A stretch of 64,000 bases of DNA from Nitrospira sp. (lineage in GTDB: Bacteria > Nitrospirota > Nitrospiria > Nitrospirales > Nitrospiraceae), in the NCBI GenBank assembly GCA_029194675.1, contig JARFXP010000004.1, forward strand, positions 1 to 64,000. The letters are read 5' to 3'. Shown in pieces: positions 55,323 through 63,742 of this stretch. Within the stretch, counting starts at the first letter, position 1. Each line of letters opens with the position of its first letter. Under the pieces are notes generated by a model. That model had not been told where the DNA came from, ran no database searches, and saw only the letters and a list, made by a program, of their open reading frames with translations. Both the position numbers and the translations under genes were made by a program.

Positions 55323-55472
55323 TTACGTGTTCGATATCGAGTCCGTATCGGAGAGCAGATGATACCGAGCCGTACACAGGAGTGCAGAGAGAATTAAGGA
55401 CGGTACCATATCTATTCCTTCTGAATAGCGGCAAGAAGTCCTGCAGCGCCGAGAAGCCCGCCCAGGATGATC

Positions 55473-55607
55473 CGAAACGACGTGTGCCAGCACCCCAAGG
55501 AACCGCTGCCGGTCCTCGTCATCCAAGAAGATGTCCTGTCGGGCGTTGCCCCGGGCCGTGACGTGGTAGAGGGCCCCAGGAAATTCGATGCGCAGCGGAC
55601 GGGCCAT
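55473..55607 (-). pseudogene. REP-associated transposase (RayT), N-terminal fragment
   Basis: From the ATG at 55607 the first 45 residues (MARPLRIEFPGALYHVTARG...FLGVLAHVVS) are identical to the intact copy at 62867-63742. The reading then diverges to unrelated sequence and a frame ending at 55323, so the gene is cut at that point. The DNA differs from the intact copy at many third positions while the protein matches, so the two copies had been kept by selection before truncation. The upstream flank with ctgacccct is shared. Confidence 0.85.
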
Positions 55608-56534: not shown

Positions 56535-56652
56535 CACTCTTGTCCAAAATAAGTTCTCAACAGGCCTCCGGCTTGTGAGTAGGATAGGTTGTTCAACGCA
56601 CATCCATCCACGGCGTTCCCGCGCCGTGGCACCCACAAGCCGGAGGTGCAGT

Positions 56653-57357
56653 ATGGTAACCGTCGCCAGTTGCTTTGCGCAAATGCTCGCCCTGATCGAT
56701 CGCGCGGACTTCGCTCGGGCCGTTCGACAGCACGCCGCTGAGCGAGCAGCCAAGGGGTTCAGCTGCTGGGATCACTTGATAGCGATGCTGTTTTGTCAGA
56801 TGGGTAGTGCGCACTCACTTCGAGAAATCTGTGGCGGCTTGGCCACCGCCCTTGGCAAACTCGTCCACCTTGGCATCCGTCGGACACCGACTCGGTCCAC
56901 GCTGGCCTATGCCAATGCGCATCGGCCCTGGCAGCTGTACGAGACGCTCTTCTATCAAGTCCTCACCCGTTGCCAAGCCGTCGCGGCCTTGAAGCGCCGC
57001 CGGTTCCGGTTCAAGCACCCCTTGCGCACCCTCGACGCAACGATCATTGAACTCTGTGCCACGGTGTTCGATTGGGCCAGATTCCAGCGGACGAAGGGGG
57101 CGATCAAGCTCCATCTGCAGCTGGATCACCAGGGGTGTTTGCCCTGCTGGGCCCTCGTGACCGACGGCGACACCAACGACGTGCGGATCGCCCAACAGCT
57201 CACCTTTGCGCCAGGCACCATCGTGGTGATCGATCGCGGGTATCTCGACTATGCCCGCTATCATCGTTGGACGGTCGACGAGGTGGGATTTGTCACCCGT
57301 CCACGCACCAACATGCTCTACGAAGTGCTGGAGCAACGTGTGCTAGGCTCGAAAAAG
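56653..57357 (+). pseudogene. IS4-family transposase, 5' part
   Basis: The ATG at 56653 has GGAGG six bases upstream. [27 protein letters not shown] and [32 protein letters not shown] are the DUF4372-like front of the IS4 group. TLDATIIELCATVFDWARF gives the first catalytic Asp and FAPGTIVVIDRGYLDYARY the second. The frame enters the IS3 element after VLGSKK and so lacks the end of the protein, which continues at 58595. Confidence 0.85.
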
Positions 57358-57398
57358 TGGACGCCTTCACCCTATGATCAGAGGTCTGGAGGTGGGGG

Positions 57399-57716
57399 AT
57401 GGAACAAGTACCGCGACAGCAGTATACGAAGGAGTTTCGGGAGCAAGCGGTGCAGCTGGTCCTGGAACAGAAGTTGACGATTCCGGAGGCAGCCAGACGC
57501 CTCACCATGTCGGGCAAGACCCTCGAGCGCTGGGTGTGTCGAGCCCGGCAGGGTCAGCTCGCGACGCTGGGCGAGAGCCGACGGCCCGTGACGGAGCTGG
57601 AGGCCGAGGTGTCTCGGCTCAAACGCGATCTCGCTGAAGCACGCATGGAGCGTGACATCCTAAAAAAAGCCACCGCGTACTTTGCGAAGGCGCAGCTGCC
57701 CGGTACGCGCTCATGA
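57399..57716 (+). CDS. IS3-family transposase OrfA
   Basis: 105 residues. The start MEQVPRQQYTKEFREQAVQLV is a typical OrfA helix-turn-helix, with LTIPEAARRLTMSGKTLERWV as recognition helix and LEAEVSRLKRDLAEARMERDILKKATAYFAK as the C-terminal leucine-zipper. It binds the element ends. Its stop overlaps the OrfB start in an ATGA junction; relatives make the OrfAB fusion by -1 frameshifting, here possibly at the cctaaaaaaagcc run near 57658-57670. Confidence 0.92.
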   Translation: MEQVPRQQYTKEFREQAVQLVLEQKLTIPEAARRLTMSGKTLERWVCRARQGQLATLGESRRPVTELEAEVSRLKRDLAEARMERDILKKATAYFAKAQLPGTRS

Positions 57717-58573
57717 GGACGCTGCGTCACCAGTATCCGTTGCGTCTGTTGTGCCGGGTCCTCGACGTGTCCCGAAGCGGGTACTATGCCTGGTGCACCC
57801 GCCGCCCCTCGACGCGCGCCCAGGAGAACGCGCGGCTGGAAGTGGCGATCCAGGCCGCGCATGTGCGCACGCGGCAAACCTACGGCCCAGAGCGGCTCCA
57901 AGCAGAATTGCGTGCCGACGGGTTCCCTGCTGGGGTCGGGCGTATCAAACGACTGCGCAAGAAACTGGGACTGCGTTGTCAACAAGTCCGCCGGTTCACA
58001 ATAACCACGGATTCAACGCATGCGCTGCCGGTAGCGGAAAACGTGTTGGCTCAGACCTTTGCCACCAGGCGACCGAATGAGGCTTGGGTCACCGATATTA
58101 CCTATGTGCCGACCGTGGAAGGATGGCTGTATCTGGCTGGCGTTAAGGATCTCTACACCTGTGAGGTGGTCGGCCATGCGATGGACGCCCGGATGACGAC
58201 GGACTTGGTGCAGGATGCACTGATGAAGGCCATCGACACCAAACGTCCAGCCCCGGGGCTCATTCATCACTCCGATCGCGGGGCTCAATATTGTGCCCAG
58301 GGGTATCAAGCAACGCTGAGGCAGTTCGGCATGATCCCATCCATGAGTCGGAAGGGGAATTGCTATGACAACGCGCCGATGGAGAGTTTCTGGGGAACGC
58401 TGAAGAATGAGCTGGTGCATCATCGTCGCTACGAGACCCGTGAGCAGGCTCGGCGCGAGATCTCGGAGTACATCGAGCTCTTCTATAACCGTCAGCGGCG
58501 GCATTCTCGGCTCGGGAATCGCTCGCCCGCTGCGTTTGTCCAGCAATGGGTCCGTCAACAGCTGGCGGCGTGA
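57713..58573 (+). CDS. IS3-family transposase OrfB (DDE integrase)
   Basis: 286 residues. The integrase core has the DDE residues: Asp in EAWVTDITYVPTVEGWLYLAGVKDLYT, Asp in LIHHSDRGAQYCAQGYQ, and Glu in YDNAPMESFWGTLKNEL. The front part HVRTRQTYGPERLQAELRADGFPAGVGRIKRL is the HTH_21 domain. Length is normal. The catalytic set is intact, so with OrfA the element could move. Confidence 0.95.
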   Translation: MRTLRHQYPLRLLCRVLDVSRSGYYAWCTRRPSTRAQENARLEVAIQAAHVRTRQTYGPERLQAELRADGFPAGVGRIKRLRKKLGLRCQQVRRFTITTDSTHALPVAENVLAQTFATRRPNEAWVTDITYVPTVEGWLYLAGVKDLYTCEVVGHAMDARMTTDLVQDALMKAIDTKRPAPGLIHHSDRGAQYCAQGYQATLRQFGMIPSMSRKGNCYDNAPMESFWGTLKNELVHHRRYETREQARREISEYIELFYNRQRRHSRLGNRSPAAFVQQWVRQQLAA

Positions 58574-58594
58574 GGCTGCAATTCATGGCGTCCA

Positions 58595-59100
58595 CTATTG
58601 ACAACCGGGGTCAACGCTCCGTGCCGACACGCGGACCGGTGCTGGTCGATGAGGTGATCCGTCTCACCAGTTCCCATGCGGCTGACCGGTGCTCGGTCCC
58701 CCTGCGACAGGTGACGATCTGGGATGAGAGACAGCAGCGGCCGCTACGGTTCCTGACCACTCTCATGCAGCTTGCGGCCAGCACGATTGCCGCCATCTAT
58801 CGGGAGCGCTGGCAGATCGAACTCCTCTTCAAGGCCTTGAAACAGCATCTCCGGATCAAGACGTTTGTGGGCACGAGTGAGAACGCCGTACAGGTCCAAA
58901 TCTGGATCGCCCTGCTCGCGATGCTGCTGTTGAAATTTCTGCAGCTGAAGTCCACGTGGCCCTGGAGTCTCTCGAATCTGGCCGCGTTGCTCCGCTTCAA
59001 TCTGTTGACCTATCGGGATCTGTGGGACTGGCTCAATGCGCCCTTTGAACGGCCGCTGCTCATACCAGCGCCGCCCCAACAGAGGCTATTCGCTACCTGA
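58595..59100 (+). pseudogene. IS4-family transposase, 3' part
   Basis: The frame downstream of the IS3 element continues the interrupted transposase: NRGQRSVPTRGPVLVDEVIRLTSSHAADRC, FLTTLMQLAASTIAAIYRERWQIELLFKALKQHLRIKTFVG, with the catalytic Glu in the Y-R-E-R-W-Q-I-E-L motif. It ends at the stop at 59098-59100. The IS3 insertion disrupts the coding sequence, so the protein is lost. Confidence 0.82.
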
Positions 59101-59494: not shown

Positions 59495-59517
59495 CGCCCT
59501 TCGCCGAGCTCAGGGCG
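59495..59517. repeat. REP-like palindrome near the RayT fragment
   Basis: cgccct...agggcg with an inner gagctc palindrome forms an imperfect hairpin next to the RayT fragment. RayT proteins act on such interspersed palindromes. Similar sequences recur in many genomes. Confidence 0.5.
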
Positions 59518-59570
59518 AACGGAGTAGGACGCAACACTAACGAAGACTGCACTCGCCTGCGGAATCGGAG

Positions 59571-59599
59571 CAAAGGGTAAAAGAACAAAGGGCAAAGGG
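59571..59599. repeat. Short direct repeats after the TIR-STAND-FGE gene
   Basis: Three near copies of caaaggg (agcaaagggtaaaagaacaaagggcaaagg) lie immediately after the gene's stop codon on the minus strand. They may mark the region that follows the variable region of a retroelement target, but are too short to decide. Confidence 0.3.
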
Positions 59600-62404
59600 T
59601 TAGGGCTCGAGGTCCTGGGCAAGACGAAAGCCAAGGTAGTTGAACCGGAAGACGGTGTCGAACCTGAACCGGTACGAAGCACGCAGGTACACCGGTCCGA
59701 AGTACCAGGAACCGCCGCGGATCATGCGCAATGTGCAATCGCCGCCGCTTGCCTCTAACCAAGCCGAGCCATCTTGGGGTGCACCCTCATACATTGCATG
59801 CGCACAATCCTCCACCCATTCAAAGACATTGCCACTCAGGTCATGGAGACCAAACTCGTTCGTCTTTTTCGTTCCAACTTCTGCCGTGCGGATTCCCGAG
59901 TTATTACTGAACACCGCGTACTTATCTAATTCAGATTCCTCTGAGGTGCCTGCCCATACCTCCTGCTTCGCTCCACTGCGCGCGGCATATTCCCATTCCG
60001 ATTCGGTGGGCAAACGGTAGTGTTTACCGGTTGTTTTGGACAGCCACGCGGCATACGCTTTGGCATCGTCCCACGACACGTTGATCACCGGCCGCCGACC
60101 ACGTCCCCAGCCCAGATCACCGGCCAATGACTTCCCTTCAGCAATGGCAAAGCGGTCGTACTCTTCAAATGTGACTTCATATTGTCCCATGGCAAAGAGC
60201 TTGATCGTCACCGAATGCACCGGATTACGCCATGATTCTCCTAGCTTCTCCACGTCGCCCATCTGAAAGGTGCCGGCTGGGATCTGTACCATCTTAGGCG
60301 GCACATGGATGCTGACCACGAGCGATTGAATTTTGAGTGCGGCCTGATCGAGGTCATAGCCCTTCTGCCAGAGCCAGGTAACTATCCAGCCCCCTAGAAA
60401 GAGGAGCAGCAGCGCCAGGCTGAAATATCGTTGTCGTCGGCTCGCTCTCTCAGCCGCCTCTCGCGCCCGTTCCGCCTCTTGCGCTCTTGCCTGCTGAGCT
60501 TGCTGCGCTTGTTCCGCCGCGGCGGCTCGCGCGCGTTCGGCTTCTTCGCGTTTGGCCGCTTCCTCCGCGAGGCGCTTCGCCTGTGCCAGCTCGTGTTCGG
60601 CCCGTTGCTGCTCTGCCTGCACCGCCCGCTCACGAGCCCACGCACTGTGCCCGATGTAGTCCGTTTCTTCATCGGTCAGCATGTCCGCTTTCTGGGAGAG
60701 CCAGCGTTGCGCCTCCACCAGCAAGGCACCTCGGAGCAGCGTGCCTTCGTCCTGTTTATTTTGCTGCCATTCGTTCACGCGCCCTCTCAGCCGCTCCCGC
60801 CACAGCAGAAACTCACGATCCTCATTCAGCCATCCTTGCAACCGTTGCCACTGGCGGATCAGCGCTTCGTGACTGACTTCGACGGTATCTTCTCCGGCCA
60901 CCGCGCGATTGGTCACCAAGAGTCGCGCGTCTGCGAGTTTCTTGACGACATCCATCGCGGCCGAACCGATTTCTGAGATCGCCGCTCTGCGGCGGGTGTC
61001 CTCACCGGTTTCGCCCGCTCGGACCACTTGAAGGAAGACGCGTTTGACCACTTCTTGTTCCGGGGGAGTGAACTTGTCAAAGACCTCTTCGGCCTTCTTC
61101 GCCACGGCGCCCTGCAACCCGCCCATGGCTTCGTAAGCCTGGTGCGATAGTTCCGGGCCCTGGCGGTCCTCCCACAAGCGTTTGAGCACGAACTCGAGCA
61201 GGGGCAGATGGCCCGGTTCATCACCGACGTCGTCCAGGATCCTTGTCACAAGACCGTCGGCAAAGAACAGTTCGACGCGACGGGCCGGGGACGTGATGGC
61301 CTGCTCCAATTCGGCTCGCGTCATCGGTCCCACATTGACCTGCGCGCCCTGCAGTCGGTCTGAGAGCGGGCGATAGGAAAGCGCCTTTCCTACAAAGTCC
61401 CCGCGGAGCGTGAGCATCGCGGTCCATGAGCCTCTCTCGCTGGCATCGAGTGTTTCATCGATGAACCGGCGGCTGGTGTGATCATCCTTCGCGACCGTAT
61501 AGAGTTCCTCGGCTTGATCGATGACGAGCAACAACCGATTCGTTCCCGATTGTTTGTCCAAGATGCGCAGGCCGACGTCGTGCAGGCTGACGTCTTGCTT
61601 CGCGAAGGCGTCCGCGAGCTTGTTGATCTTCGATAAGCGGTCTGTTTCATCCTTCGTTTCCGGCTCAAGGAGCGGAGACACAGCCCACGCCAGGGCCTTC
61701 AGCGGTTCACCGCCAGGAAACAGGGTCGCGACTTCCCAGGTCGTTTCTTTTTCCTGTCGTAGCTGCGGGACGAGGCCGGCCCTCACGACCGACGACTTGC
61801 CGGAGCCCGATGCCCCCACGACGGCGATGAACCGATGCTGCCGGACGGCCCCATGGAGGTTTCGGACTGCAGCCTGTCGCCCAAAAAAGAACGGGGCATC
61901 TTCTTCCCGAAAGTAGAGAAGGCCGCGGTACGGACAGAGGGTCGTACGGGTGACTCTGAGGCGTTCGGCAAGATCCGGTCCAGGCGCTTCACGTCGGATG
62001 GCGCCGGCAAGCAGCGAAAGCAATGCCGGATCATCCGTGCCCTGACGTAGATCGACCCAGGTATTCTGGCTAAGGAAGCCGAGTACCGGATCCGAGCCCG
62101 GCAGCAAGACGGGGATAACAGGAAAATCCGCTTTGCGCCCCTGCCGATCCAGCGCAAAGTTTGATTCCCGCGTCTGCCATGGCCCCATTTCTCCGGGGCC
62201 AATGCACACGGCGACCGCCCGGCACGAAACCAGTGTCTGTTCCAGCGCCTGTGGCCAAGGCCTGCCCGGGACGAGGTACCAGCGATCGAGGAATGGCTTG
62301 AGGCCCTGATCCCGGAGTGATCGCGCGATGCGCTCCACCGGCTCGCGGTCGCGCCAGTGGTAGCTGAGAAAGACATCGAACTGAATCGAGGATCGATCAG
62401 CCAT
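59600..62404 (-). CDS. TIR-STAND NTPase-FGE domain protein
   Basis: 934 residues from the ATG at 62404; the frame extends to 62542. Residues 8-135 form a TIR domain (FDVFLSYHWRDREPVERIA, PWPQALEQTLVSCRAVAVCIG, GPWQTRE with a conserved Glu). A STAND P-loop NTPase follows: Walker A GASGSGKS at 197-204 and Walker B LLLVIDQAEELYT. After an Ala/Glu-rich coiled coil and one membrane helix (FSLALLLLFLGGWIVTWLW, about 661-680), a formylglycine-generating-enzyme-like domain (about 702-934) reads IPAGTFQMGD, PVINVSWDDAKAYAAWLSKTTGKHYRLPTESEWEYAAR and GLHDLSGNVFEWVED. The final 30 residues (RGGSW...LGFRLAQDLEP) look like a retroelement variable region. TIR domains in bacterial conflict systems often degrade NAD. 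No ribosome site is clear. Confidence 0.85.
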   Translation of the reverse strand: MADRSSIQFDVFLSYHWRDREPVERIARSLRDQGLKPFLDRWYLVPGRPWPQALEQTLVSCRAVAVCIGPGEMGPWQTRESNFALDRQGRKADFPVIPVLLPGSDPVLGFLSQNTWVDLRQGTDDPALLSLLAGAIRREAPGPDLAERLRVTRTTLCPYRGLLYFREEDAPFFFGRQAAVRNLHGAVRQHRFIAVVGASGSGKSSVVRAGLVPQLRQEKETTWEVATLFPGGEPLKALAWAVSPLLEPETKDETDRLSKINKLADAFAKQDVSLHDVGLRILDKQSGTNRLLLVIDQAEELYTVAKDDHTSRRFIDETLDASERGSWTAMLTLRGDFVGKALSYRPLSDRLQGAQVNVGPMTRAELEQAITSPARRVELFFADGLVTRILDDVGDEPGHLPLLEFVLKRLWEDRQGPELSHQAYEAMGGLQGAVAKKAEEVFDKFTPPEQEVVKRVFLQVVRAGETGEDTRRRAAISEIGSAAMDVVKKLADARLLVTNRAVAGEDTVEVSHEALIRQWQRLQGWLNEDREFLLWRERLRGRVNEWQQNKQDEGTLLRGALLVEAQRWLSQKADMLTDEETDYIGHSAWARERAVQAEQQRAEHELAQAKRLAEEAAKREEAERARAAAAEQAQQAQQARAQEAERAREAAERASRRQRYFSLALLLLFLGGWIVTWLWQKGYDLDQAALKIQSLVVSIHVPPKMVQIPAGTFQMGDVEKLGESWRNPVHSVTIKLFAMGQYEVTFEEYDRFAIAEGKSLAGDLGWGRGRRPVINVSWDDAKAYAAWLSKTTGKHYRLPTESEWEYAARSGAKQEVWAGTSEESELDKYAVFSNNSGIRTAEVGTKKTNEFGLHDLSGNVFEWVEDCAHAMYEGAPQDGSAWLEASGGDCTLRMIRGGSWYFGPVYLRASYRFRFDTVFRFNYLGFRLAQDLEP
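59618..59719 (-). other. Candidate diversity-generating retroelement variable region
   Basis: The codons between GGSW and LGFR in the TIR-STAND-FGE gene are almost all NNC: TAC, TTC, TAC, TTC, TTC, GAC, GTC, TTC, TTC, AAC, TAC. Each could come from AAC by change at the first two bases, the adenine-specific pattern of DGR mutagenic homing, in the usual C-type lectin or FGE location at the end of the protein. No reverse transcriptase, Avd or template repeat is visible in the window. Confidence 0.5.
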
Positions 62405-62866: not shown

Positions 62867-63742
62867 TCAGCTCTTGCTATGTGCATCTATCGAAGTTGGG
62901 ACATTCACGATGCGACTGATCGTCGAATAGTGCAAGCCTACGGCCTGTCCAATCTCGGACAAACAGTAGCCGTGTTCCAGATGCGCGCGACGAATGACCT
63001 CGTTGCGTTGAGCCCGGTCTGTCCGCGCACGTCTGCCGAATAGCCGGCTCAGCTTCGGTCGGCCCGCAAACCGCTGTTGCCGGGGAATCTCCTTCAATCG
63101 ACGCGTATCTTGAAGCCCAGGCGCCAGGCGTTCGACGAATCGCTCACTGCCGAGCAGCACTTGTCCTCGGACATGTTCCCAGGGCGAACCATAGCCGATC
63201 CCTTCGGCAACGAAGGCCCGGTACTTCCGCTGCGCAGCCGCGCGCTGATGGCCAAACTGAGACAGCAGCCAGTCCACCGCCAACCACGACGGCACAGGGA
63301 CGAGGCCTGCCGTGGCTTGGTAGCTCGACCAGGAATAGGTATCGGCTTTGCGTGTGCGCCGGATTCGCACCGGATTGAGCACGACATACCGGCAGAGCTC
63401 CAGCAGATAGCTGTTCCGATCGACTACAATCGCCTTGAAACGGCCCTGTAAGACGTGGCCGACCCGACCGTGACGCCGGTTGAAGGCTTGGGTAGAGACG
63501 CCGTTGAGCTGGCGCATGGCTTTTGAGAGATTACCTTCAGGCGTTTCCACCACCAGATGGAAATGATTGTCCATCAGGCAATAGGCGTGCAGCCGAAGAT
63601 GAAAGCGGGAGACGACATGTGCCAGCACCCCGAGGAATCGCTGTCGATCCTCGTCATCCAGAAAGATGTCTTGCCGGGCGTTGCCCCGGGCCGTGACGTG
63701 GTAGAGCGCGCCAGGAAACTCAATTCGCAGGGGGCGGGCCAT
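62867..63742 (-). CDS. REP-associated tyrosine transposase (RayT), intact
   Basis: 291 residues of the IS200-like Y1 transposase superfamily. MARPLRIEFPGALYHVTARGNARQDIF at the front and HLRLHAYCLMDNHFHLVVETPEGNLSKAM hold the HUH motif (His-Phe-His). The catalytic Tyr is probably in the VGHVLQGRFKAIVVDRNSYLLELCRYVVLNPVR segment. A C-terminal helix-turn-helix (HLEHGYCLSEIGQAVGLHYSTISRIV) follows. RayT proteins nick REP palindromes and are thought to spread or maintain them. A REP-like hairpin lies just upstream at 63831-63850. A truncated relative sits at 55473-55607. Confidence 0.92.
   Translation of the reverse strand: MARPLRIEFPGALYHVTARGNARQDIFLDDEDRQRFLGVLAHVVSRFHLRLHAYCLMDNHFHLVVETPEGNLSKAMRQLNGVSTQAFNRRHGRVGHVLQGRFKAIVVDRNSYLLELCRYVVLNPVRIRRTRKADTYSWSSYQATAGLVPVPSWLAVDWLLSQFGHQRAAAQRKYRAFVAEGIGYGSPWEHVRGQVLLGSERFVERLAPGLQDTRRLKEIPRQQRFAGRPKLSRLFGRRARTDRAQRNEVIRRAHLEHGYCLSEIGQAVGLHYSTISRIVNVPTSIDAHSKS

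What the first reader, a model, noticed from the sequence alone, without database searches (positions are those of the whole stretch)
59600..62404. TIR-STAND-FGE protein with a DGR-like variable end
An intracellular TIR effector plus STAND NTPase is joined through a membrane helix to a C-terminal FGE/C-type-lectin-like domain. The codons in its last 30 residues fit adenine-directed mutagenesis of a template rich in AAC. A receptor whose sensor is rapidly diversified and whose effector is a TIR domain would be an adaptive-like immune sensor. Related domain mixes are known, but this particular protein appears to be an orphan here.
Basis: partly seen in the sequence, partly recalled or inferred. 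Interest (0 to 1): 0.82.

Follow-up and report, generated by a model that had tools for sequence, protein, structure and literature searches.

The report
Immune receptor tip rewritten by retroelement
A Nitrospira protein that looks like an immune receptor ends in a stretch that a mutating genetic copier (a diversity-generating retroelement) once rewrote, but that copier is not found in this genome, which keeps seven more such receptors and only broken pieces of the machinery.

Summary
Window 59600-62404(-) encodes TIR - nSTAND1 NTPase - coiled coil - membrane helix - FGE domain, and its last 34 codons are a genuine variable region (VR) of a diversity-generating retroelement (DGR). I inferred the unseen template (TR) from the window VR and four paralogous tails in the same genome. 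Searching the genus then found real TRs at 90-93% identity beside DGR cassettes (Avd, IPIGNLTSQ reverse transcriptase) in other Nitrospira; two lie directly behind a TIR-nSTAND1-FGE target. The window VR differs from the best TR at 20/30 adenines but only 5/72 other sites; ten unrelated FGE tails of this genome differ at 30-49% of non-adenine sites. The window VR and a TIR-FGE gene on another contig agree at 48/48 never-adenine sites although the rest of their FGE domains is 38% identical, so one template wrote both. This genome (99.2% complete) has no DGR RT and no TR, only three truncated avd fossils behind other VR genes. The gene is an orphaned, trans-written DGR target. Present-day diversification is unproven. 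TIR/STAND/FGE DGR sensors, trans writing and transposon decay are already described (Doré 2024): new member of a known kind.

The parts
59600..62404 (-). DGR target gene: TIR - nSTAND1 - coiled coil - TM - FGE receptor
   Evidence: ORF, Pfam, start supported by alignment with relatives
62030..62374 (-). TIR domain; W122-x3-E126 is the candidate catalytic glutamate motif (inferred by analogy)
   Evidence: PF13676 E 5e-24; W122 and E126 invariant in four relatives
60746..61933 (-). nSTAND1 NTPase, Walker A GASGSGKSS
   Evidence: PF20703 E 6e-121
60422..60643 (-). Ala/Glu/Arg-rich coiled-coil-like linker; sequence identity to orthologs breaks off here (about 60440-60503)
   Evidence: sequence; sliding identity to LK70 and ACE_NIT13 falls from 88-100% to 65-80%
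60368..60424 (-). single hydrophobic (membrane) helix FSLALLLLFLGGWIVTWLW, basic on its N-terminal side
   Evidence: sequence; topology inferred, no predictor run
59618..60298 (-). FGE-sulfatase (C-type-lectin-like) domain
   Evidence: PF03781 E 4e-49; TvpA 2y3c E 1e-28 and PvdO E 2e-40 by sequence; fold search
59615..59716 (-). variable region (VR) written by a DGR
   Evidence: 20/30 A-site versus 5/72 non-A-site differences from a real TR; controls
59506..59599 (-). remnant of the target-avd spacer; the cassette that follows in relatives is absent
   Evidence: alignments of downstream regions
56575..59100 (+). insertion-sequence nest downstream: DDE_Tnp_1 transposase split by an IS3-type element
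   Evidence: Pfam

Best explanation
The gene is a target of a Nitrospira diversity-generating retroelement. In relatives an Avd-RT-TR cassette is present; by the established DGR mechanism it copies the template RNA with random changes at adenines and the cDNA replaces the 3' end of FGE-domain genes. In this lineage one template wrote several genes in trans, among them this one and a TIR-FGE gene on another contig (shown: 48/48 agreement at never-A sites against 38% identity in the rest of the FGE domain). The cassette is absent from the assembly; three truncated avd genes behind other targets show that local cassettes decayed. The protein most likely works as a membrane-anchored sensor: the FGE/C-type-lectin face carrying the VR binds a ligand, probably from a phage or competitor, nSTAND1 then oligomerises with ATP, and the TIR domain is activated and depletes NAD or signals to abort infection. 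Shown by sequence: VR origin and trans writing. Shown for the assembly only: loss of the cassette. Inferred from family knowledge: ligand binding, periplasmic placement of the FGE domain, oligomerisation, TIR activity.
For: The TR inferred from own VRs was then found at 90-93% identity beside RT genes in relatives. Own-TR comparisons in relatives: 20/31 A and 0/71 non-A; 19/31 and 0/71; remote VRs 10/30 and 0/72, 13/28 and 0/65. Window VR 20/30 and 5/72. FGE tails of the same genome outside the group: 30-49% non-A mismatch. Window versus C3_65k: 0/48 never-A differences, 16/34 A-site differences. Avd: PF22296 and NF033474 DivGenRetAVD above cut-off in relatives; truncated avd fossils in own genome. 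No DGR RT or TR in own genome; RTs there are group II. Domains.
Against: No strain or read data, so present activity is untested. Five non-A differences from the best foreign TR: the window's own TR is unknown. Immune role and ligand are untested; PADLOC gave only weak partial hits. Three of the eight VRs look degenerate.
Confidence: 0.8

Rival explanations
1. The DGR is present and active in the living organism but missing from this 16-contig assembly (gap, collapsed repeat, or carried by only part of the population), so the receptor is still being diversified.
For: The window and C3_65k VRs show no difference at 48 never-A sites, 23 of them third positions, which suggests fairly recent writing. 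In other genomes contigs end at VRs (G066 C64 and C47), so these repeats do break assemblies.
Against: 99.2% completeness; no RT, intact avd or TR found by HMM, protein or DNA search; the VR matches of this genome do not lie at contig ends; the single-contig genome G001 also has a VR gene without a DGR RT.
Confidence: 0.3
2. Frozen relic: the cassette has been lost from the lineage and the receptor repertoire now evolves only by ordinary mutation and by exchange of whole sensor halves.
For: Truncated avd genes at three loci; degenerate VRs at C2_132k, C3_426k and C5_59k; insertion sequences behind the window gene; VR-like tails in 31 of 79 genomes but DGR RTs in 10.
Against: The silent sites of the window and C3_65k VRs have not drifted apart.
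Confidence: 0.5
3. Machinery on a phage or plasmid acts in trans on the chromosomal targets.
For: DGR RTs of this general family occur on viral contigs (up to 50% identity).
Against: None of the viral RTs is close to the Nitrospira RT (80% or more identical among Nitrospira); the Nitrospira cassettes examined lie behind chromosomal-type receptor targets.
Confidence: 0.08
4. No DGR: ordinary variation of an FGE-domain tail under selection.
For: FGE tails that fit neither TR family also vary at the same structural positions.
Against: Those tails mismatch the TR at 30-49% of non-A sites, the window VR at 5%; codon positions 1-2 vary while third positions are kept; real TRs and machinery exist in the genus.
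Confidence: 0.01

Closest known systems
DGR-diversified STAND/TIR/FGE conflict-system sensors of Thiohalocapsa PB-PSB1 and other multicellular bacteria (Doré et al. 2024, PMC10907252)
   Same: nSTAND1 and TIR domains with C-terminal FGE/CLec VR; some loci incomplete and written in trans; transposons degrade RT and TR; domain shuffling plus hypermutation
   Different: That genome keeps RTs and TRs and has read-level proof of diversification; here a Nitrospira genome keeps only VRs and avd fossils
Putative conflict systems with STAND and FGE domains (Kaur et al. 2020, PMC7159879, found by search, not read here)
   Same: Predicted architecture class: STAND NTPase with effector and sensor domains, DGRs mentioned in the text
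   Different: Prediction by comparative genomics; this gene and its template history were not compared with it
Treponema denticola variable protein TvpA (PDB 2y3c)
   Same: FGE-type C-type-lectin domain; sequence E 1e-28, third in the fold search; its being a DGR target is from memory
   Different: No TIR or STAND part
BPP-1 phage DGR (AY029185)
   Same: Components RT, template repeat and VR in the target's 3' end (record annotation); adenine-specific writing is from established knowledge
   Different: Phage tail-protein target next to its cassette; here cellular receptors, several of them remote, and no cassette in the genome

Membership tests
DGR target gene (variable protein) | VR differs from a TR mainly at template adenines | tested here: met
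   20/30 A versus 5/72 non-A against a relative's TR; no own TR to compare with
DGR target gene (variable protein) | VR in the C-terminal part of a CLec/FGE-type fold | tested here: met
   PF03781; TvpA match by sequence and fold
Complete DGR at this locus or in this genome | DGR reverse transcriptase | tested here: not met
   Only group II RTs; a relative's DGR RT scores above the PF00078 cut-off, so it would have been seen
Complete DGR at this locus or in this genome | Template repeat | tested here: not met
   Inferred TR and whole-cassette DNA searches find only VRs and avd fragments
Complete DGR at this locus or in this genome | Accessory protein Avd | tested here: not met
   Only fragments of 38-53 residues at three other loci
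TIR-STAND immune sensor | TIR effector, STAND NTPase with Walker A, C-terminal sensor | tested here: met
   Domains; Walker A in sequence
TIR-STAND immune sensor | NAD cleavage or signalling on ligand binding, phage protection | not testable with these tools
   Needs experiments
Formylglycine-generating enzyme | Active-site cysteine pair in the C-terminal segment | tested here: not met
   The VR (residues 943-976) contains no cysteine; that the human pair 336/341 lies in this segment is from memory and was not aligned here

The most novel reading that the evidence does not exclude
One DGR template supplies a genome-wide repertoire of receptors with different N-terminal parts (TIR-nSTAND1, TIR, caspase, DUF4062-nSTAND1) in trans, from a machine that is not kept in every genome of the genus, while whole TM-FGE sensor halves are also exchanged between receptors: a two-level (module exchange plus hypermutation) receptor repertoire in a nitrifier.
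Probability: 0.25. Interest if true: 0.75.

Novelty: new member of a known kind. Interest (0 to 1): 0.52.

Why it matters
It shows DGR-diversified TIR/STAND sensors in Nitrospira, an important nitrifier genus, shows that orphan VRs can be recognised and their template inferred from paralogs alone, and gives evidence that one template wrote several receptors in trans. If the machinery is really gone, the genome is a natural case of what happens to a diversified receptor repertoire after its mutator is lost; if it is only unassembled, these receptors are candidates for an adaptive-like immune repertoire.

Tried and rejected
Ordinary FGE variability: rejected by the control tails and the template match. 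The RTs of this genome as DGR RTs: rejected, group II maturases. A TR in the assembly: none found with the VR, the inferred TR or a whole cassette as query. A cassette hidden in the window: tblastn of RT and Avd against the window gave only chance hits. The A/non-A Fisher test as sole evidence: rejected because some ordinary FGE tails also give small values. Four tails first used as controls (C2:912456, C2:339593, C1:1466168, C1:1471027) turned out to approach a second DGR template family and are not counted as clean controls. PADLOC gave only weak partial hits. Population variation could not be tested: no metagenome scans or conspecific genomes on hand. The AlphaFold model is of modest quality and poorest in the VR, so no residue-level claim is built on it.

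Full report
What is there. The gene at 59600-62404(-) encodes TIR, nSTAND1, a coiled-coil-like linker, one hydrophobic helix and a C-terminal FGE domain. The genome is a Nitrospira: the closest named relatives of the protein in the species collection are Nitrospira MAGs. It has 5.2 Mb in 16 contigs and is 99.2% complete.

Test of the variable end. A DNA search of the own genome with the last 160 bases found further genes ending in the same segment. Aligned by codon, these tails keep the third base of nearly every codon and vary at the first two, in AAC-like columns. From the window tail and four paralogs I wrote down the template that adenine mutagenesis would require and searched for it. In the own genome the best match was 85% and was one of the VRs. 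In 79 genomes of the genus, matches of 90-93% appeared in G066, G012, G058 (two), G037, G013 and G056, and one of 89% in G021. These carry AAC-rich sequence of the type GGSWNNKPENLRASNRNRNNADNRNNNIGFRLAQ, and homology to the VRs stops at the same CAG. Except for G056 they lie at the end of a reverse transcriptase gene with IPIGNLTSQ and YVDD motifs (broken in G037); complete cassettes have an Avd in front. In G056:C54 the template sequence is fused in frame to a target gene. In G012 and in G058:C47 the cassette directly follows a TIR-nSTAND1-FGE target 59% and 69% identical to the window protein.

Numbers. In cassette-bearing genomes the target VR differs from its own TR at 20/31 and 19/31 adenines and at 0/71 and 0/71 other bases; a remote VR on another contig of G066 differs at 10/30 and 0/72, and one in G021 at 13/28 and 0/65 of the shorter core. 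The window VR differs from the G066 TR at 20/30 adenines and 5/72 other bases. As a control I compared FGE tails of the same genome outside this group: the ten that fit neither TR family mismatch at 30-49% of non-A sites, against 0-14% for the clear VR group. The control also shows that the A/non-A Fisher test alone is too lenient for FGE domains.

Trans writing. The window gene and the TIR-FGE gene at C3:65564 share 38% identity in the FGE domain before the VR. Inside the VR, all 48 sites that are never adenine in any of the eight TRs, and that lie before base 81 of the core, are identical, 23 of them third positions, while 16 of 34 sites that can be adenine differ. Descent or gene conversion alone would not leave the silent sites identical and the adenine sites scrambled. 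The simplest reading is that one template wrote both.

State of the machinery. The own genome has four PF00078 matches at three loci. Two give group II maturases by TIGR04416; the third is interrupted and has the QGxPLSP motif; they are 29-32% identical to the Nitrospira DGR RT. A relative's DGR RT scores 70 bits with PF00078, so an intact one would have been seen. A whole cassette used as DNA query finds only two VRs and three avd fragments, at C1:351404, C2:134159 and C5:58749, of 38-53 residues, each on the strand of and behind a VR gene. Behind the window gene only about 90 bases of the target-avd spacer remain, followed by a dispersed repeat and, at 56575-59100, a nest of two insertion sequences. 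In ACE_NIT9 (L128) a transposase-like insertion separates a related target from an avd fragment. In the genus, VR-like tails occur in 31 of 79 genomes and DGR RTs (50% identity or more) in 10; some of the 31 are short partial matches. The single-contig genome G001 has a clear VR gene and no DGR RT. VR genes without machinery are therefore not peculiar to this assembly.

The receptor set. Eight genes of this genome carry the tail: window, C1_351k, C2_640k and C5_59k (TIR-nSTAND1-FGE), C2_132k and C3_426k (DUF4062-nSTAND1-FGE), C3_65k (TIR-FGE) and C4_372k (caspase-FGE). The VRs of C2_132k, C3_426k and C5_59k look degenerate. The window gene's TIR-STAND half is 93-94% identical in DNA to genes of LK70 and ACE_NIT13, but identity falls abruptly at 60440-60503 and the TM-FGE halves are only about 65-80% alike; each of the three has a different nearest relative for that half. 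The sensor half appears to have been exchanged as a module.

Mechanism. From established knowledge of DGRs and STAND proteins: the diversified CLec face binds a ligand, the STAND part oligomerises, and the TIR acts on NAD or signals. The TIR glutamate motif, Walker A and a hydrophobic helix are present; ligand, topology and activity are untested. The FGE domain is unlikely to be an enzyme: there is no cysteine in the C-terminal segment where, from memory, FGE active-site cysteines lie. A shallow AlphaFold model (pLDDT 67.6, poorest in the VR) matches PvdO, TvpA and FGE.

Relation to known work. Doré et al. 2024 (PMC10907252) describe DGR-diversified nSTAND1/TIR/FGE sensors, trans activity, transposon decay of RT and TR, and domain shuffling combined with hypermutation. 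An early DGR survey lists a small share of hits in Nitrospirae (PMC3521204). This is therefore a new member of a known kind; its particular features are the missing machinery, the fossils and the trans-written repertoire.

Noticed in passing
G000 C2:339593, C1:1466168, C2:912456, C1:1471027 (L232, L234, L229, L235): Tails of the GFRCA type that approach a second DGR template family of the genus (RT with IPIGNQTSQ; TR GGSWNNEPDNVRSANRNRNTPTNRNDNIGFRCAQ; cassettes in G016, G055, G058); non-A mismatches 7-9 of 63-64. No RT of that type in this genome.
   Followed up: partly
window 60440-60503; L129, L132: Sharp fall in identity between orthologs at the start of the membrane helix: the TM-FGE sensor half has been exchanged as a module while the TIR-STAND half is 93-94% identical.
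   Followed up: partly
G056:C54:3633 (L078) and G056:C2:116120-116313 (L124): A target gene ending in template sequence and, elsewhere in the same genome, an RT tail followed by a VR and a target 3' end: they look like reciprocal products of exchange between VR and TR.
   Followed up: no
G000 C1:351404, C2:134159, C5:58749; L128, L141, L151: avd genes truncated at similar points (mostly after about 40-55 codons) in several genomes and loci; the own C1 and C2 copies share the sequence after the break.
   Followed up: partly
L133 (Caballeronia), L145-L147, L150, L154, L161 (Methylococcaceae/Methylococcales), L155 (Variovorax): Relatives of the TIR-STAND(-FGE) protein outside Nitrospira (50-57% identity in the best segment); their tails were not examined.
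   Followed up: no
window 55323-55607 and 62867-63742: A Y1_Tnp (REP-associated type) transposase upstream of the target and what looks like a truncated copy of it beyond the insertion-sequence nest; REP-like repeats (TTCGCCCTGAGC...) follow several VR genes.
   Followed up: no
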